Assembly: GCA_021780415.1 (NCBI GenBank)
Contig: JAJXYW010000183.1
Coordinates: 1-7,036, forward strand
Source: Acidobacteriota bacterium
GTDB taxonomy: Bacteria > Acidobacteriota > Terriglobia > Terriglobales > Acidobacteriaceae
DNA length: 7,036 bases
Direction: 5' to 3'
In this document: positions 1-6,781 of the stretch, one piece after another
Numbering within the stretch: the first letter of the stretch is position 1
Layout: every line of letters starts with the position of its first letter
Notes under the pieces: generated by a model
Database searches by the model: none
The model's input: only the letters and a program-made list of their open reading frames with translations
Told to the model about the DNA's origin: nothing
Position numbers and translations under genes: made by a program

Positions 1-67
1 TGCCATGCCCCTTTGCATGCGCCTCGAATATCTTCCGACGCAGATCATCCTCGTAGGCTCTCGCCAT
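1..67 (-). CDS. IS630-type transposase, N-terminal fragment (cut by window edge)
   Basis: Reading the minus strand from an ATG at 67 gives MARAYEDDLRRKIFEAHAKG and then HG, open to the window edge. This opening (MARAY-x-x-DLRRK followed by an E-A-x-x-x-G helix) is what I know as the N-terminus of many IS630-family transposases, where it begins the helix-turn-helix DNA-binding region. The catalytic DDE part would lie outside the window, so integrity of the element cannot be judged. No strong Shine-Dalgarno is visible before the ATG. The IS end should lie between 68 and about 230, but no inverted repeat can be assigned without the other end. The identification rests on only 22 residues; another helix-turn-helix protein with a similar start is possible. 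Confidence 0.6.
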   Translation of the reverse strand, partial: MARAYEDDLRRKIFEAHAKGHG

Positions 68-289
68 CTTGTTTTCGTCGCAGAGTCTCGCCTCTTCTAC
101 CTTACACCATCACTACTCTTGCTCTAACAGCAGGAAACAGGAAATCGCGATCCGGAAGTAAGGCTTAGCCAAAGCCACCCTGCTGGCGCGCAGGAGCAAC
201 GGGCGGTTGCTGGTTTCCCACCGTCATTCAGTGCGATTGCTTCCCACTTGCCAAGCAATCGCCCGCTCGCCCCACCGATCAGCGCCCGG
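68..289. other. Intergenic region between transposase start and SGNH hydrolase stop
   Basis: No convincing gene is seen in these 222 bases. The stretch should contain the outer end of the insertion sequence and the 3' end of the peptidase/hydrolase operon. The only clear structure is a perfect 10-bp inverted repeat at 233-262, listed separately. A short GGCTT/AAGCC pairing occurs around 163-176. Confidence 0.5.
233..262 (-). terminator. Perfect 10-bp hairpin downstream of the hydrolase, possible terminator
   Basis: GCGATTGCTT (233-242) and AAGCAATCGC (253-262) are exact reverse complements around a 10-base spacer. The hairpin starts 27 bases past the stop codon of the minus-strand hydrolase, where a transcript end is expected. 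No U-tract follows on the minus strand, so it is not a canonical intrinsic terminator. It could be an RNA-stabilising 3' hairpin or an interspersed repeat. Confidence 0.35.
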
Positions 290-1084
290 CTACTTCTCCG
301 CCAGCGCCGACTCCGCCAGCGGCTCCATGATCGCGTACCCTGCGGCATTCGGATGCACGCCATCCAGGCTAATCCCGGGCTTCATCCCGCCATCTTTATC
401 CGCCATGGACGTCCAGTAATCCAGATACGTCAGCTTCTCCTGCGCGCAATACCCCTTGATCCACGCATTCAACTCCTCGATCTTCCCCGCAGGATCAGCC
501 ACCGAAGGCCGCCACGGATACGTCTTCACCGGCAACACCGACGCCAGCACCACGCGAATCCCATTCGCCTTCGCAATCTCCGTCATCGACCGAAAATTAT
601 CCTCAATCATCCCCAGCGTCGACGGCCCGGTATTCCCCGCAATATCATTCGTCCCTGCCAGCATCACCACCGCCTCAGGATGCAACGCCACCACATCCTG
701 CCGAAACCGCACCAGCATCTGCGGCGTCGTCTGCCCGCTGATCCCGCGATTCACATAGGGCTTACCCGGAAAAAACTTCCCCCCATTTTTCACCCAGCCA
801 TCCGTAATCGAGTCGCCATAGAACACCACGCGTCCCGGCTCGCTTTCAGGCAGCGCCAAATCCGCCGCGCGATATCTCTCCAACTGCGCCCAATCCTCCA
901 ACTCCAACTCCATCCGCGCCACCTTCATCTCCAGCTTCTGCTGGCTCTCCGCCGCCGCAACCGGCGCAGCCTTATCCGGGGCCACCGGAGCACTCTGCTG
1001 CGCAAAACCCCGCGCCCCCATCGCCATCAACCCCACCGCCACCACACAAACCATCCTTCGCATCGCACTCTCCCATGGGTTCAT
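290..1084 (-). CDS. Exported SGNH/GDSL-family hydrolase (esterase/lipase-like)
   Basis: A 264-residue SGNH/GDSL hydrolase, expected to cleave an ester, acyl or acetyl bond; the substrate cannot be read from the sequence. All four family blocks are present: GDS with nucleophile Ser92 (block I), NRGISG with oxyanion Gly117 (block II), AGTND with Asn146 (block III) and DGVHP with Asp241 and His244 (block V). The N-terminus is a signal peptide (VCVVAVGLMAMGARGFA, cleavage likely near residue 28), so the enzyme should act in the periplasm or outside. Residues 45-75 look like a charged helix before the catalytic fold. The chosen ATG at 1084 overlaps the upstream peptidase stop (ATGA) and has a GGAGGAGGG Shine-Dalgarno 9 bases away. 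An alternative ATG at 1063, preceded by GGGAG, would give a shorter, equally good signal peptide (257 residues). The gene is last in a two-gene operon. Confidence 0.9.
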   Translation of the reverse strand: MNPWESAMRRMVCVVAVGLMAMGARGFAQQSAPVAPDKAAPVAAAESQQKLEMKVARMELELEDWAQLERYRAADLALPESEPGRVVFYGDSITDGWVKNGGKFFPGKPYVNRGISGQTTPQMLVRFRQDVVALHPEAVVMLAGTNDIAGNTGPSTLGMIEDNFRSMTEIAKANGIRVVLASVLPVKTYPWRPSVADPAGKIEELNAWIKGYCAQEKLTYLDYWTSMADKDGGMKPGISLDGVHPNAAGYAIMEPLAESALAEK

Positions 1085-3282
1085 TTGCCCGATCCCTCCT
1101 CCACCAGCCCGCGGTCCTTCAGCATCGGCCCGGTCGTCGGCTCCTTCCCCAGCCACGTCGAGTACATCTTGTCCAAATCCTCCGTATTCCCCCGCGAAAG
1201 CACCATCTTCCGGAACCGGTCGCCATTAGCGCGCGTCAGCCCGCCATGCTCCTCGAACCACTGGTACGCATCATCATCCAGCATCTCCGTCCACGAGTAC
1301 GCATAGTATCCCGCCGCATATCCATTCGCCCAGATATGCAGAAAGTAGCTCGACCGATACCGCGGCGGCACCGCCACCAGGTCCAGCTTCGTCTTCCGTA
1401 GCGCCGCCTTCTCAAACACGTCGACATCCTGCAGCGGCGCACTCGCCGGCAGCGTATGCCACTGCATATCCAACTCCGCAGCAGCCAGCGCCTCGGTCAC
1501 CAGATATCCCTGGTTGAACTTCGCCGCCTTCTTGATCTTCGCCACCAGTTCTTCCGGCATCGGCGCGCCCGTCTTGTAGTTCACCGCGTAGTGCTTGAAC
1601 ACCTCCGGATAGCTCGCCCAGTGCTCATTGAACTGCGACGGAAACTCCACAAAGTCCCGCGGCACATTCGTTCCTGAAAGGCTCGGATACTCCGTGTCCG
1701 CGAACGTCCCATGCAGCCCGTGCCCAAACTCATGGAACATCGTCGTCACATCCGAGAAGCTGATCAGCGCCGGCTGCCCCGGCGCCGGCTTCTGGAAGTT
1801 CGCCACGTTGTAGATCACCGGCAGCGTGCCCAGCAGCTTCGACTGCCCCACAAAATTACTCATCCACGCGCCGCCGTCCTTGTTATCGCGCTTGAAGTAG
1901 TCGAAATAAAACAGTGCCAGCGGCTTCCCATTTGTGTCGAACACCTCGAACACCCGCACATCCGGCTGATACACCGGAATATCCTTGCGCTCCTTGAACG
2001 TAATCCCATACAGCTCGTGCGCGGCATAGAACACCCCGTCCACCAGCACACGATTCAGCTCGAAGTACGGCTTCACCTGCGCCTCATCCAGGTCATACTT
2101 CGCCTTGCGCACCTGCTCGGAATAAAAATTCCAATCCCACGGCCGCACCTGAAACCCCGCACCCTCCATGCCGCTACCCATGCCCGCGGTCTGCTTATCA
2201 ATCAGCGCCTGAATCTCATGCTGCTCGTTCTTCGCCTTCGCCGTTGCAGGCCCCACCAACGCATCCATAAATTGCAGCGCCGCCTCCGGAGTCTTCGCCA
2301 TCTGATCCTGCAGCGCCCACGCCGCATAGTTCGGGAAGCCCAGCAGCGCCGCCTTCTCCGCCCTCACCTGCGCCAGCCGTGCAATCGTCGCGCGCGTATC
2401 GTTCGCATCGTCGCGTTCGGTCCTCGTCCACGAGTCCTCAAACAGCGCCTTTCGCGCCTCTCTCTCGTTCATGAACGTCAGGTCCGGCTGCTGCGTCGTA
2501 TTCTGCAGCGGGATCACATAACCCTCCTGCCCGCGGCCCTTCGCCGCCAGCGCCGCCGCCTCCATCTGCGCCTCACTCAACCCCGCCAGCGCCGCCTTGT
2601 CCGTCGTCGCATACGCCGCCATCTTGGTCCCCGCCAGCAGCTTGTTCGTAAACGTATTCGACAGCACCGCCTCTTCCTCATTCAGCTTCTTCAGCTTCGC
2701 CTTGTCCGCATCGCTCAGTTGCGCTCCCGCCTTCACAAACGCCTTGTAGTCCACCTCCAGCAACCGCGCCGACTCCGCATCCAGCCCCAGCTTCTCGCGC
2801 TCGTCATACACCGTCTTCACGCGCGCAAACAACTTGCTGTTCAGATAAATCGCATCCTGCAGCGCTGCCAGTTTCGGTGTCACCTCGTCCTGAACCTTCT
2901 GCAGCGCGTCATTGCTGTTGGCCTGCACCACGCCCTGGAACACCAGGTTCACGCGATTGAGCAACTGCCCCGCCTTCTCCATCGCCACCACGGTGTTCTC
3001 AAATGTAGGCGCCGCAGGATTCTCCGCAATCGCCTCGGTCTCCTTCAACTGCTGCGCAATCCCGGCCTCGATCGCCGGCTGATAATCCGAGTCCTTGATC
3101 CGATCAAACGGCGGAGCCTGAAACGGCAGCGTACTCGCCGCATAAAACGGATTCGCCGGCCCAAACGCTCCACTCCCATCCGACGTCCCACTGCTCGCCC
3201 CACTCTGCGCCGCCGCCGTTCCCGCCACCATCGCTCCCGCCATCACCAAACCGCACATCCTCTCCAACCGCATCTTCTTCAC
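1081..3282 (-). CDS. dcp: M3-family zinc metallopeptidase, peptidyl-dipeptidase Dcp type, exported
   Basis: A 733-residue M3-family metallopeptidase resembling peptidyl-dipeptidase Dcp, which removes dipeptides from the C-termini of short peptides. The zinc site is complete: HEFGH at 517-521 (His517, catalytic Glu518, His521) and the third ligand Glu546 in VEFPSQ, 29 residues after the first His as in thimet oligopeptidase. The substrate-binding tyrosine region GYAAGYYAY (654-662) is also present. Residues 1-26 form a signal peptide ending AAAQ, followed by a Ser/Gly-rich linker to about 40, which explains why it is longer than E. coli Dcp (about 680). The protein is therefore probably periplasmic. 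The start is GTG at 3282, supported by AGGAG 7 bases upstream; the in-frame ATG at 3273 would be too far from that site. The stop codon overlaps the start of the hydrolase gene, so the two are probably co-translated. Confidence 0.93.
1094..1102 (-). promoter_or_regulatory. Ribosome binding site of the SGNH hydrolase, inside the peptidase 3' end
   Basis: Minus-strand GGAGGAGGG lies 9 bases before the ATG at 1084, within the last codons of the peptidase gene. Together with the 4-base ATGA overlap it supports translational coupling and the 1084 start. A second, weaker site (GGGAG at 1070-1074) sits 6 bases before the alternative ATG at 1063. Confidence 0.5.
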
Positions 3283-3358
3283 GTCGTTACTCCTATCCCC
3301 CCGAAGCTACGCCAAGCCCCCACCCCAGCACAACCCCACCCGCGTAAACTGGAAGTCC
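3283..3358. promoter_or_regulatory. Divergent intergenic region between dcp and asnS
   Basis: These 76 bases separate two divergently transcribed genes and must carry the start signals of both. The plus strand is very C-rich. A TAAACT at 3345-3350 could be a -10 element for asnS, which would give a very short leader; no good -35 precedes it. On the minus strand no box resembles a sigma-70 consensus well. The asnS ATG has only a weak GGAAG at 3351-3355 close in front of it. Confidence 0.3.
3290..3294 (-). promoter_or_regulatory. Ribosome binding site that decides the GTG start of the M3 peptidase
   Basis: Minus-strand AGGAG is 7 bases from the GTG at 3282 but 16 bases from the ATG at 3273, so it favours the GTG start. 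Confidence 0.6.
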
Positions 3359-4966
3359 ATGCAAACCACGACCGCTCCACTCACCACCATCGCCGAAATC
3401 GGCCAGCACGAAGGCCAATCCATCACGCTCCGCTGCTGGCTCTACAACCTCCGCTCCTCCGGCAAGCTCCTCTTCCCCACCTTCCGCGACGGCACCGGCA
3501 CCATCCAGGGCATCGTCCCCAAAGCCGCCGTCCCCGAGCACGTCTTCGACACCCTCAAGTCCCTCACCCTCGAGTCCTCCCTCACCGTCCGCGGCCGTGT
3601 CCGCGCCGACACCCGCGCACCCTCCGGCTTCGAGCTCGACGTCGACGACCTCGCCATCACCCAGCGCATCCCCGACGACACCCCCTACCCCATCCAGCTC
3701 AAAGAAGCCGGTGTCGACTTCCTCATGGAGCACCGCCACCTCTGGCTCCGCACCCCTCGCCAATCCGCCATCCTCCGCGTCCGCGCCACCATCCAGCGCG
3801 CCGCCGCCGAGTACTTCGACACCCACGGCTACTTCCGCACCGACCCGCCCATCCTCACCCCCAACGCCTGCGAAGGCACCTCCGAGCTCTTCGAGATGGA
3901 CTACTTCGGCGACGACAAAGCCTACCTCACCCAATCCGGCCAGCTCTACATCGAAGCCACCGCCATGGCCCTCGGCAAGGTCTACAGCTTCGGCCCCACC
4001 TTCCGCGCCGAAAAATCCAAAACCCGCCGCCACCTCACCGAGTTCTGGATGATCGAACCCGAGGTCACCTACCTCGACCTCGACGGCCTCATGGACCTCG
4101 CCGAGAGCTTCCTCACCCACATCGTCACCCGCGTCCTCGAGTCCCACCGCCCCGACCTCAAGCTCATCGGCAAAGACATCACCAAACTCGAAGCCGTCAT
4201 CGCCCCCGCCGCCACACCCCTGTCATCTCCATCGGACCCTCCCACAGATGTGTCATCTCGACCGGAGCCTCCCACACCCATGTCATCTCGACCGGAGCGC
4301 AGCGAAGTGGAGAGACCTGCATCTGCCCCCGCCCAACCCTCAGGAAGCAGCCCTGAAGGGGACGGGCTTCAGCCCGTCCATCACACCCCCACCACCACCG
4401 CGGCTTTAGCCGCTGAGGGAACGCCCACCACCTCCCCAGCGGGCCACGCCGAAGGCAGTAAATCCCCACGTAGTGGGTTCCCACGTTTAACCTACGACGA
4501 AGCCCACGCCATGCTCCTCGACGCCCACGCCCGCGGCCTCCTACCCTCCGCCCACGTCTACGGCGACGACTTCGGCTCCCCCGACGAGACCTACATCAGC
4601 TCCCAATTCTCGAAGCCCGTCATGGTCCACCGCTACCCCGCGGCCGTCAAAGCCTTCTACATGCAGCCCGACCCCCTCGACCCCACCAAGGCTCTCTGCG
4701 TCGACGTCCTCGCCCCCGAAGGCTACGGCGAAATCATCGGCGGCTCCCAGCGCGTCGACGACTACGACCTCCTCAAATCCCGCATCGAAGCCCACAACCT
4801 CCCGCTCGCCGCCTTCCAGTGGTACCTCGACCTCCGCCGCTACGGTAGCGTCCCCCACAGCGGTTTCGGCATGGGCATCGAGCGCTGCGTCGCCTGGATC
4901 TGCGGCCTCGAGCACGTCCGCGAAACCATCCCCTTCCCAAGAACCCTAAACCGCATCTACCCATAG
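3359..4966 (+). CDS. asnS: Asparaginyl-tRNA synthetase with a 90-residue repeat-derived insertion
   Basis: Class IIb aminoacyl-tRNA synthetase that charges tRNA-Asn with asparagine in the cytoplasm. Residues 1 to about 105 form the OB-fold anticodon-binding domain. The catalytic domain carries motif 1 (helix 135-160, ending in DPPILTP), the CEGTSELF segment (171-178), motif 2 (FRAE 215-218 to RHLTEF 224-229) and motif 3 (GFGMGIER, 502-509). The ending [11 protein letters not shown] is typical of AsnRS rather than AspRS. The protein has 535 residues; bacterial AsnRS usually has about 430-470. The excess is one block, residues 284-373, rich in Pro, Ser, Thr and Glu, between IAP and FPRLTYDEA. 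Removing it leaves 445 residues with normal continuity. The block is built from interspersed DNA repeats, described separately. No stop or frameshift occurs, and both sides retain the catalytic residues, so the gene is probably functional. Start ATG 3359 gives the expected N-terminus. Confidence 0.95.
4221..4326 (+). repeat. TGTCAT repeat: three tandem 30-base units, the last a full element
   Basis: Units begin at 4221, 4251 and 4281, exactly 30 bases apart. Units 1 and 2 match at 23 of 30 positions. Units 2 and 3 share their first 18 bases (TGTCATCTCGACCGGAGC). The third then continues as GCAGCGAAGTGGAGAGACCTGC, which matches 17 of 22 bases of the intergenic element at 6755-6776. Because 30 is a multiple of three, the units encode ten-residue repeats ([20 protein letters not shown]). 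Confidence 0.8.
4351..4379 (+). repeat. Palindromic repeat (GGGCTTCAGCCC family), copy inside asnS
   Basis: The core 4360-4379 is a perfect palindrome with 9-base arms, GGACGGGCT and AGCCCGTCC, around TC. With the flanking CCCTGAAGG it matches the intergenic copy at 6543-6571 in 26 of 29 positions. Here it is translated as EGDGLQPV. Confidence 0.85.
4400..4413 (+). repeat. Short palindrome GCGGCT-TT-AGCCGC inside asnS
   Basis: A 6-base perfect stem with a TT centre, 20 bases after the previous palindrome and built on the same plan (GGCT, two bases, AGCC). It probably belongs to a related interspersed family; no second copy lies in the window. Confidence 0.55.
4465..4484 (+). repeat. Overlapping inverted repeats at the right edge of the asnS insertion
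   Basis: CCCAC-GTA-GTGGG (4465-4477) overlaps GTGGG-TT-CCCAC (4473-4484), so the middle arm GTGGG can pair with either side. The second repeat crosses the junction into the conserved FPR codons. Confidence 0.5.
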
Positions 4967-4976
4967 CTAAATGGGT
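4959..4976 (+). terminator. Weak hairpin over the asnS stop codon
   Basis: ACCCAT (4959-4964) pairs with ATGGGT (4971-4976) across a 6-base loop, overlapping the TAG stop. No T-run follows, so termination here is doubtful and some read-through into the ATPase gene is possible. Confidence 0.2.
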
Positions 4977-5013
4977 GTAGAAATGAAGCATCTCTAGCGA
5001 ATTGCGAGGAGCC

Positions 5014-6363
5014 ATGGGCCTTAAAGCTGTCGATGTATTTACTCCGGGTTCATTTCCCGAGTACACCTATGTGGTCCGTGCTGAACAGGGCCTCGAGCAG
5101 AGCTTGCGTGATTCGCTTGAAACCACAGGGCAAATCGTTTCTATCTCAGGCCCATCGAAGTCTGGAAAGACCGTACTTGTCGAAAAGGTGGTAGGACAGA
5201 ATTCCCTCATTACCGTTACTGGAGCTTCCATTCGGACGCCAGACGATCTCTGGCAGCAGGTCTTGGACTGGATGGACGTTCCGACGAGCACATCTGTCGG
5301 CGAGAATTCCGACTCCACAAAAGGGGTCGAAGCCAGCGTAAAGGGCGGATTCTCAGTGCCCTTTTTGGGGAAGGCAGAAATCGGAACTACTGGAACACTG
5401 AGCACGGCTAGTGGACACACAACTGGTGCCGTAAGAAACAGGCGCGGCTTACAACAGGTAGTCGCAGAAATCGCAGATAGTAGCTTTGTGATTCTGATAG
5501 ATGACTTTCACTACATGCCGCGCGACGTCCAAACAGAAGTGGCAAAATCGCTTAAGGAAGCCGTAAGGCTCAAGCTCAAAATCGTAACTGCATCTGTCAG
5601 CCACAGGGGCGACGACGTAGTCAGAGCAAACCCTGAATTAAGGGGACGAGTCAGGGCGATTGATCTGGGATACTGGAGTAGCAAAGAGCTTTGTGAAATT
5701 GCTACGACCGGATTCTCCAAGCTTAATGCCTCATTCGATCCGGCAGTCAGCGCAACTTTCGCGAGCGAGAGTGCGGGATCACCGCAATTGATGCAGCTTC
5801 TCTGCTTAGAAGCCTGTTTCGTAACTAACCTTCGGGAAGAACATCAAGGAATTATCCCCGCTGCACCCAATCTGGACAGTAGCTTGCTAAAGATGGTCTT
5901 AGAGCAAACTAGCTCCCGTACAGATTTTAGATCTTTGGTTGATGTCCTCGACTCAGGCCCTCCTACTAGAGGAACAAAGCGAACGATGTTCACTTTTCAC
6001 GACGGAACCACCGGTGATGTTTACCGAGTCGTACTTAAGGCCGTTGCAAGCAACCCTCCGCAGCTATCCTTCACGTACGACGAGTTGCTAATTCGTACAG
6101 CAAAAGAGTGCGTAGTCGATTCTCCCGTCGGCTCCAGCGTCACAAGCACCTGCGTTCATATGGCAAAGCTAGCAACGGAGAAATTCCCAAATGATCAGGT
6201 GATCGACTGGGATGATAGCAAGCCGGTATTAGACCTCCCCAACCCATACTTCATGTTCTATCTTCGCTGGTCTGGACGACTCCACACACCACAGCGCGCT
6301 GCACTGTCCCAACAACTGCAAGACACTTCCGCAGAGGCTTCCAACTTGGAGTTCGAAAAATAG
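5014..6363 (+). CDS. P-loop ATPase of STAND/AAA type, function unknown
   Basis: A 449-residue soluble ATPase with no signal peptide or membrane segment. Visible parts: an N-terminal lead-in (residues 1-40); Walker A GPSKSGKT (46-53); a Gly/Ser/Thr-rich stretch (about 92-140) inserted before the next conserved helix; Walker B FVILIDDFH (158-166) with Asp163 and Asp164; a probable sensor strand KIVTASVSHR (189-198); NPELRGRV (206-213); a GSP motif (255-257) like the GxP of STAND ATPases; and a C-terminal region (335-420) that looks like a winged helix ending in PYFMFYLRWS. I do not recognise a named gene. Such ATPases often act as switches in conflict or regulatory systems, but no effector domain or partner is seen. 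The ATG at 5014 is preceded by GAGGAG at 5006-5011, unusually close; an upstream in-frame TTG at 5002 has no ribosome site. Codon use is much less C-rich than in asnS, suggesting transfer. Confidence 0.85.
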   Translation: MGLKAVDVFTPGSFPEYTYVVRAEQGLEQSLRDSLETTGQIVSISGPSKSGKTVLVEKVVGQNSLITVTGASIRTPDDLWQQVLDWMDVPTSTSVGENSDSTKGVEASVKGGFSVPFLGKAEIGTTGTLSTASGHTTGAVRNRRGLQQVVAEIADSSFVILIDDFHYMPRDVQTEVAKSLKEAVRLKLKIVTASVSHRGDDVVRANPELRGRVRAIDLGYWSSKELCEIATTGFSKLNASFDPAVSATFASESAGSPQLMQLLCLEACFVTNLREEHQGIIPAAPNLDSSLLKMVLEQTSSRTDFRSLVDVLDSGPPTRGTKRTMFTFHDGTTGDVYRVVLKAVASNPPQLSFTYDELLIRTAKECVVDSPVGSSVTSTCVHMAKLATEKFPNDQVIDWDDSKPVLDLPNPYFMFYLRWSGRLHTPQRAALSQQLQDTSAEASNLEFEK

Positions 6364-6421: not shown

Positions 6422-6455
6422 CCACCCCGCCCATCTCCACGCCACCCAAACCACC

Positions 6456-6495
6456 TGTCATCCTGACCCTGAGCTTGCCGAAGGGCAAGGACCCC
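6456..6495 (+). repeat. TGTCATCCTGA-type interspersed repeat with inner hairpin
   Basis: Starts TGTCATCCTGA and ends AAGGACCCC. The inner part CTTGCC-GAAG-GGCAAG (6474-6489) is a 6-base stem with a four-base loop. The CCCTGAGCTTGCCGAAGGG core resembles a repeat with a CCCTGAG...CGAAGGG pattern that I recall from intergenic DNA of many bacteria. It shares the TGTCAT opening with the asnS tandem units and the element at 6746. Confidence 0.6.
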
Positions 6496-6542
6496 GAGTC
6501 CCTCAACCCCACCCACACTCTCAACCCTTCCTCACCACCAAG

Positions 6543-6571
6543 CCTTGAAGGGTACGGGCTTCAGCCCGTAC
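6543..6571 (+). repeat. Palindromic repeat (GGGCTTCAGCCC family), intergenic copy
   Basis: Perfect palindrome 6552-6571 with arms GTACGGGCT and AGCCCGTAC around TC, preceded by CCTTGAAGG. It matches the copy inside asnS at 26 of 29 positions. Two of the three differences lie opposite each other in the stem (G-C there, T-A here), so pairing is kept. Confidence 0.85.
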
Positions 6572-6745
6572 AAAAACCCAGCCCGCGCAAAGCGCGCACC
6601 TTGCTGCCGCAGGCCGGAGTGAAGCCGCAGGCGCAACGACTGAATTGCCTTCCCCCTGCCGCCCACATCCCACCACCACAGCCAGGCCCTGTGCCTTTAG
6701 CTGGAGCCGCTCGCTTTCAGGTGGAGCCGCAAACATTCTGATGGT

Positions 6746-6776
6746 TGTCATTCCGTAGCGAAGCGGAGGAATCTGC
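6746..6776 (+). repeat. TGTCATTCC-type interspersed repeat, intergenic copy
   Basis: Starts TGTCATTCC and continues GTAGCGAAGCGGAGGAATCTGC. The second part aligns without gaps to the third tandem unit inside asnS (GCAGCGAAGTGGAGAGACCTGC) at 17 of 22 positions, so both belong to one family. Confidence 0.65.
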
Positions 6777-6781
6777 TGCTT

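What the first reader, a model, noticed from the sequence alone, without database searches (positions are those of the whole stretch)
4208..4477. An essential tRNA synthetase carries an in-frame 90-codon insertion made of intergenic repeats
The AsnRS sequence is normal up to IAP (residues 281-283) and resumes at FPRLTYDEA (374 on), a join that is continuous in ordinary bacterial AsnRS. The block between has three tandem TGTCAT units and several GC-rich palindromes, two families of which recur in non-coding DNA of the same window. It contains no stop, keeps frame, and is predicted to be a disordered Pro/Ser/Thr/Glu-rich loop between motifs 2 and 3. The known parallel is the Rickettsia palindromic elements found within proteins; bacterial AspRS also tolerates a domain between motifs 2 and 3. 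A repeat-built extension in AsnRS is, to my knowledge, not described.
Basis: partly seen in the sequence, partly recalled or inferred. Interest (0 to 1): 0.8.

Follow-up and report, generated by a model that had tools for sequence, protein, structure and literature searches.

The report
Mobile-repeat landing site in AsnRS
A soil acidobacterium's asparagine-tRNA enzyme carries an extra flexible loop spelled by short mobile DNA repeats that normally sit between genes, and its relatives keep gaining and losing different repeats at the same spot, which suggests that non-coding selfish DNA is repeatedly turned into protein at fixed places.

Summary
asnS (3359-4966, +) is an ordinary AsnRS interrupted after residue 283 by 88 extra in-frame codons. 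The block is a chain of dispersed repeats: a TGTCAT palindrome family (V; copies up to 98% identical elsewhere in relatives' genomes), then a doublet palindrome (F2; about 80-86%), then a piece (Z) seen only in asnS. The site is a recurrent landing place. Of 177 AsnRS rows (window included), 64 carry 30-146-residue linkers (57 different) and 94 carry 2-13 residues. The tree needs at least 31 changes, and enzymes 94-96% identical in DNA differ by presence. V is read in all three frames. F2 and F3 also flank Y1/HUH transposase (RAYT/TIRYT) genes in relatives as inverted copies. It is wider than asnS: in a single-contig Granulicella chromosome an ABC exporter and a protoporphyrinogen oxidase carry such repeats in frame, at positions that vary in homologs too. 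The kind is known (Rickettsia palindromic elements, intragenic REPs). New here are the host phylum and repeated use of one site by unrelated families, with matched with/without pairs. Expression, fitness effect and transposition are inferred; essentiality of asnS is not shown.

The parts
3359..4966 (+). asnS, asparagine--tRNA ligase, 535 aa
4208..4477 (+). in-frame repeat-built block, residues 284-373 (net 88 more than P0012)
4212..4301 (+). three degenerate 30-nt units, each with TGTCAT (family V)
4281..4335 (+). most complete V element; 96% over its 55 nt and up to 98% over shorter parts elsewhere in relatives' genomes (G176, G312)
   Evidence: query 77-131
4354..4426 (+). F2 element, a doublet of GC-rich palindromes; matches both inverted flanks of the Y1_Tnp gene in L184 (E 7e-9, 4e-7) and, weakly, those in L172 (E 1e-3, 3e-3)
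   Evidence: (query 150-222)
4425..4482 (+). module Z (..[12 protein letters not shown]); DNA matched only the asnS insert of relative G280, so a repeat origin is not shown
   Evidence: query 221-278, listed rows; 2.9 Mb of fetched loci
6432..6572 (+). non-coding repeats of the same families as 4254-4380 (V-like and F2)
6745..6780 (+). further V-like palindrome in non-coding DNA (TTGTCATTCCGTAGCGAAGCGGAGGAATCT..)
   Evidence: read by eye

Best explanation
[not shown]
For: Repeat identity. Recurrence at one site: 64 of 177 rows with linkers of 30-146 aa (57 distinct), 94 with 2-13, at least 31 changes on the tree, 15 of them forced by branches of support >=95. Near-identical pairs differing by the insert: L103/L120 at 94.4% and 95.7% nt in the two flanks; P0028 (91 aa) next to P0066 (7 aa) on short branches. 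V is used in three frames (frames 0, 1, 2), giving VILSE, HPERS and SSRPE-type peptides. Both halves lie in one open frame in 24 of 24 insert-bearing relatives. Transposase link: 8 of 20 Y1_Tnp loci have inverted flanking pairs (3 of the 20 have short flanks); L184 matches the window's F2 on both sides, L172 weakly; L174 matches the asnS insert of its own genome (F3) on both sides; L179 is F4. Orientation: V sits on the locally C-rich strand in 96 of 96 sites with |skew| > 0.1; in the 16 of 28 linkers where an element was recognised, each has the same orientation. Other proteins. Disorder.
Against: No peptide or RNA evidence exists here. Transposition is not observed, and no target-site signature was established. 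V, the commonest family in asnS, has no transposase found beside it, and PMC3733652 reports none beside CGTC repeats. The link of family A to a Y1 gene (L181) is by eye only; a search did not confirm it. Module Z has no copy outside asnS. 3 of the 64 long linkers show no recognised module, and the module patterns were written after reading the linkers. dN/dS within homologous linkers is below 1 (0.19-0.89 in 8 pairs), which may mean constraint, though the protein alignment leans that way; dS is raised above the flanks in 4 of 8 pairs, which drift of a fixed insert does not predict.
Confidence: 0.85

Rival explanations
1. The linker is an adaptive, functional extension (binding, regulation, or an mRNA structure in asnS), selected for what it does.
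For: It is retained in-frame in many lineages. dN/dS within homologous linkers is 0.19-0.35 in the three pairs among L120, L123 and L126. The insert RNA folds more stably than shuffles (z -2.1, 4 of 200 as good).
Against: Content differs almost completely between many close relatives; near-identical enzymes lack it; dN in linkers is 6 to 19 times that of the flanks in 6 of 8 pairs and 1.4 and 2.4 times in two; the same module types sit in unrelated proteins.
Confidence: 0.09
2. Modules spread by recombination or template switching between repeats already present (and by exchange of asnS alleles), not by transposase action.
For: Repeats are numerous enough to recombine; P0019 and P0026 have identical cores but linkers of 110 and 86 aa, a change of one tandem unit; dS is raised in linkers in 4 of 8 pairs.
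Against: First entry into an allele with a 7-aa linker needs a de novo insertion; strand-locked orientation and inverted flanks of Y1 transposases fit ssDNA transposition better. The two may act together.
Confidence: 0.25
3. One old AsnRS insertion domain that has simply diverged in Acidobacteriaceae.
For: A short shared module Z, or its trimmed form, recurs in many linkers, so part of the site may be old; L120, L123 and L126 share a homologous linker.
Against: Rows with 2-13 aa linkers are nested among long ones; linkers match different repeat families of their own or related genomes.
Confidence: 0.04
4. Assembly artefact or decaying pseudogene.
For: The window's own genome and reads are not held.
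Against: P0001, 99% identical with the same block, from another contig; a single-contig chromosome with its own insert and one AsnRS match; frame intact in 24 of 24; flank dN/dS of 0.06-0.18.
Confidence: 0.02

Closest known systems
Rickettsia palindromic elements (RPE) in protein-coding genes (Ogata et al. 2000, not read; seen through passages of PMC2229807, PMC10969869, PMC3767692)
   Same: Dispersed palindromic repeats, intergenic and also in-frame inside conserved genes; gene kept open.
   Different: Free-living Acidobacteriota; several unrelated repeat families chained at one site; several with/without pairs of close relatives. PMC3767692 left open whether RPE sites are hot spots for insertions of different origins; here one site does take different families.
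Intragenic REPs of the GTAG and CGTC superfamilies (PMC3733652; abstract, passages, sections 6, 15, 16 read; its list of target ORFs, Additional file 3, not seen)
   Same: REPs inside ORFs of known proteins, tRNA synthetases of X. oryzae, E. lithoralis and S. alaskensis among them; inserts of 20-82 aa; recB of two Xanthomonas species hit at about the same site. V resembles the CGTC type (TGTC tag, stem opening with AT), by eye.
   Different: For other genes of one category that paper reports different sites, and the parts read name no Acidobacteriota case; here three proteins show one position each that varies across many species.
RAYT / TIRYT (TnpA-REP, Y1 HUH) elements with flanking inverted REPs or TIRs (PMC3733652 section 16, PMC6006769 passages)
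   Same: F2, F3 and F4 flank Y1_Tnp genes in inverted pairs; acidobacterial TIRYTs were already listed there.
   Different: The parts read do not link acidobacterial TIR repeats to coding inserts.
AsnRS, class IIb synthetase (T. thermophilus 5zg8, 9sh8)
   Same: Sequence of both halves; first structural match, though with rmsd 16.9 and TM 0.55 for this model.
   Different: The solved enzyme has no block between query residues 279 and 372 (alignment).

Membership tests
Asparaginyl-tRNA synthetase | score above curated AsnRS cut-offs | tested here: met
   NF003037 516.5 bits (cut-off 414), TIGR00457 455.2 (342.6)
Protein-coding palindromic repeats (RPE-like) | palindromic element dispersed in non-coding DNA | tested here: met
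   for V and F2; not for piece Z
Protein-coding palindromic repeats (RPE-like) | in-frame inside a conserved gene, absent from orthologs | tested here: met
Protein-coding palindromic repeats (RPE-like) | translated in the cell | not testable with these tools
   needs proteomics
RPE sensu stricto | Rickettsia genome | tested here: not met
   acidobacterial host by AsnRS relatives
RPE sensu stricto | RPE-1 to RPE-10 sequence | not tested
   RPE sequences were not compared
RAYT/TIRYT-associated repeats (F2, F3) | inverted copies flanking a Y1_Tnp gene | tested here: met
   L184 (F2, both flanks), L172 (F2, weak), L174 (F3, both flanks); 8 of 20 loci have inverted flanks
RAYT/TIRYT-associated repeats (A) | inverted copies flanking a Y1_Tnp gene | tested here: inconclusive
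   L181 resembles A by eye; the search with three inserts holding A found no match there
RAYT-associated REP, GTAG type | terminal GTAG tetranucleotide | tested here: inconclusive
   no GTAG tag seen by eye at the ends of F2/F3/A; element boundaries not mapped
CGTC-tagged repeats (for V) | CGTC/TGTC tag, 8-9 bp stem beginning AT, tail CCA, no transposase | tested here: inconclusive
   V starts TGTCAT, stem read by eye; no V match in 20 Y1_Tnp loci except one looser pattern match in L165; no alignment to the published consensus made

The most novel reading that the evidence does not exclude
Acidobacteriaceae run a continuing, strand-polarised conversion of non-coding mobile palindromes into protein: single-stranded REP/TIR elements enter fixed permissive loops of conserved enzymes again and again, in any open frame, making fast-turnover disordered linkers across the proteome, with the local strand asymmetry of the chromosome deciding orientation and perhaps which genes can receive them.
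Probability: 0.35. Interest if true: 0.85.

Novelty: new variant of a known kind. Interest (0 to 1): 0.72.

Why it matters
Coding palindromes are best known from Rickettsia, and it stayed open whether they enter hot spots repeatedly (PMC3767692 passages). Here one loop of a conserved housekeeping enzyme shows many gains and losses of unrelated repeat families, with natural pairs of closely related enzymes with and without the insert, in a free-living family with a single-contig genome of a named strain (Granulicella sp. 5B5). That makes the fitness cost, enzymology and insertion mechanism of protein-coding selfish DNA directly testable, and suggests a route by which non-coding DNA becomes disordered protein segments.

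Tried and rejected
Pfam found no family in the block alone and Rfam none in the window at gathering scores. A first split of the alignment by MAFFT columns misplaced the linker and was replaced by flank motifs. I asked whether insert-bearing asnS lie on strongly C-rich coding strands: 22 of 24 long against 26 of 93 others at skew <= -0.18 (Fisher p 1.2e-8; Mann-Whitney p 1.4e-8). The threshold was chosen after seeing the data, and the phylogenetically independent pairs do not support it (median p 0.5), so it stays a lead. A replication-linked reading of the orientation lock is attractive, but skew changes sign too often for one origin and terminus, so I do not claim it. Substitution rates rest on 18-47 linker codons per pair and on protein alignments; the pair window/L086 compares linkers that may not be homologous. 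The claim of an essential gene was dropped after GatB was found in 24 of 24. Rows dropped before counts: 12 of 69 genome sequences tried (6 without a full frame, 6 without anchors), 4 of 121, 48 of 120 without anchors, 42 of 120; one search read 10 of the 18 repeat segments called inside genes.

Full report
What is there. The window is from an Acidobacteriaceae-like genome, judged by its AsnRS relatives. asnS runs 3359-4966 on the + strand, 535 codons, and scores as a true AsnRS. Residues 284-373 (4208-4477) interrupt a join that is IAP-SP-FPRL in relatives such as P0012, 447 aa. The block makes the protein 88 residues longer than that and keeps the frame. A fold prediction from a 47-row alignment has mean pLDDT 75.3 and pTM 0.70; 286-306 and 308-369 are below 50 with no secondary structure, and so are shorter stretches of the catalytic half (167-183, 186-191, most of 216-227). 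Its first structural matches are AsnRS (TM 0.55 by query, rmsd 16.9), so it is a moderate model.

It is made of repeats. Three 30-nt units with TGTCAT stand at 4212-4301, then an F2 doublet of palindromes at 4354-4426, then module Z. Within the window, 4254-4380 aligns to non-coding 6432-6572 at 46.8 bits against at most 32.6 in 200 shuffles. The block's DNA was searched in seven relatives: 14, 18, 43, 49, 48, 55 and 47 matches at E <= 1 (candidates capped at 40 in five of them; one listed match in G280 is its own asnS). V-part matches reach 95-98%, F2-part matches of 65-75 nt reach 86% identity. A 17-base V pattern occurs in 50 of 55 genomes, up to 376 times, with the reversed-pattern control at 0 or 1 per strand. 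Module Z matched nothing outside the asnS of G280, in the listed rows and in 2.9 Mb of fetched loci.

The site is recurrently filled. Among the 120 listed nearest AsnRS homologs, 65 have linkers of at most 13 residues, 13 have 18-25 and 42 have 30 or more. With 56 genome loci and the window there were 177 rows (170 different); 64 are long, with 57 different linkers, and 61 of 64 hold at least one recognised module (patterns written after reading the linkers). On a FastTree tree of the enzyme without the linker, 'long' needs at least 31 changes, 15 of them forced by branches with support of 95 or more; the label is still clustered (shuffled mean 52.4). L103 (7 residues) and L120 (46) are 94.4% and 95.7% identical in DNA on the two sides. 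P0019 and P0026 have identical cores but linkers of 110 and 86 residues. V is read in three frames, as HPERS, VILSE and SSRPE-type peptides. In the family-wide search 354 of 398 genomes had asnS at E <= 1e-80. I re-searched 48 that were split or weak and found 24 with linkers of 29 or more, each with both halves in one open frame; the DNA of most other genomes was not inspected, so 24 is a minimum.

Rate of change. In 8 linker pairs dN was 1.4-19 times that of the flanks (6 to 19 times in six of them); dS was above the flanks in 4 and below in 4; dN/dS inside linkers was 0.19-0.89. Fast change fits weak constraint, but ratios below 1 do not exclude some selection.

Two repeat families are transposase-linked. 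All 8 genomes tested have Y1_Tnp genes. Of 20 such loci, 8 carry inverted pairs in their flanks. The window's F2 matches both flanks in L184 (E 7e-9 and 4e-7) and, weakly, those in L172 (E 1e-3, 3e-3), and one side of L182, L173 and L175 (E 1e-6 to 4e-4). The asnS insert of G176 matches both flanks of G176's own Y1_Tnp gene in L174 (family F3; E 2e-12, 8e-8). L179 in G176 has F4. Family A near L181 is a resemblance by eye that one search did not confirm, and V matched none of the 20 loci. This is the RAYT/TIRYT arrangement described in PMC3733652 (sections 15 and 16 read), which lists acidobacterial TIRYTs. V resembles its CGTC/TGTC class, which that paper finds without transposases.

It is not only asnS. 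In 400 kb of the single-contig chromosome of G176, 73 repeat segments were found and 18 fell in genes called by my own simple caller. Of the 10 read, three are internal and in frame: asnS, an ABC exporter and a protoporphyrinogen oxidase, so at least 3 of 307 called genes; the other seven lie at or near gene ends. The exporter record P0121 names the strain Granulicella sp. 5B5; its contig length, 3,928,701, equals that of G176 C1. The same positions vary in homologs: 25-116 residues in 72 of 120 exporters with anchors; 8-16 residues in 63 and 18-69 in 15 of the 78 of 120 oxidases with anchors. V-type peptides recur in both, F2-type in the exporters, F3-type in an oxidase (read from the printed linkers).

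Orientation. In 60 stretches of G176, G344 and G100, V lies on the locally C-rich strand in 96 of 96 cases with |skew| > 0.1 (7 of 10 where skew is weaker); F3 9 of 9, F2 7 of 7, F4 4 of 4 (40 of the 60 stretches were chosen because they hold V sites; only three genomes). In asnS linkers an element was recognised in 16 of 28, always in the same orientation, and the coding strand there is usually C-rich. The 12 asnS with a G-rich coding strand (skew >= 0.1) have linkers of 5-7 residues. Phylogenetically independent pairs do not establish this last link.

How it most likely works. Shown: repeat origin of the V and F2 parts, recurrence, frame keeping, transposase association of F2 and F3. Predicted: disorder. 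Inferred: single-stranded insertion by Y1 enzymes, near-neutral retention, translation. Lagging-strand targeting is documented for IS200/IS605 transposases (PMC6006769 passages), which would fit a strand lock, but skew flips here are too many to call the C-rich strand simply 'lagging'.

Novelty. Searches for palindromic elements with Rickettsia and in-frame, REP with Acidobacteria, RAYT with coding or in-frame, RPE with protein-coding, Granulicella with palindromic repeats, AsnRS with insertion and Acidobacteria, TIRYT with Acidobacteria, Acidobacteriaceae with intragenic repeats, Opitutus with intragenic REP, and REPIN with GC skew showed no title or abstract start on repeat-coded inserts in Acidobacteriota. 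The library is open-access only, the lists are cut, and most listed papers were not opened; of PMC3733652 the supplementary list of target genes was not seen. PMC12306157 lists REP counts for Granulicella aggregans (passage). The phenomenon belongs to a known kind, and the repeated multi-family use of one site is the part I found no report of.

Noticed in passing
L271/L272 (G344:C1 1115-1136 kb), L145-L164 (G176), window 1-5000: Extreme local GC skew (0.2 to 0.4 in size) in many domains with sharp sign flips (-0.34 in 1115-1125 kb, +0.32 in 1126-1136 kb of G344), not following gene direction in the window; V orientation follows it in 96 of 96 sites with |skew| > 0.1. Cause unexplained.
   Followed up: partly
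P0019, P0021, P0026: AsnRS linkers built of tandem 24-residue units that include a copy of the EAIIAP flank; the identical cores of P0019 and P0026 differ by one unit, suggesting very recent expansion or contraction.
   Followed up: no
L156 16104-16673: An RsmI-like frame (identity by eye) of 189 residues ends inside a repeat of family F4, so repeats may also make new C-termini.
   Followed up: no
G235:C8:1167-2597: gatB match split in two within one open frame, in a genome with 239 V pattern matches; possibly another repeat-coded insert, or just divergence.
   Followed up: no
L165, L173: Two further Y1_Tnp genes flanked by inverted pairs of another family (CCAGCCTGGGGCGTAGCCCCAGG-like / CAGCCCAGGCCGAAGGCCTGGG-like).
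   Followed up: no
window 5002-6363: AAA ATPase-like gene with skew near zero in its first kilobase (+0.08, -0.01) beside strongly C-rich neighbours; perhaps recently acquired.
   Followed up: no
G344:C1 1.07-1.20 Mb: V elements are crowded here: 32 of the 72 positions listed for this genome (110 in all) lie in this stretch.
   Followed up: no
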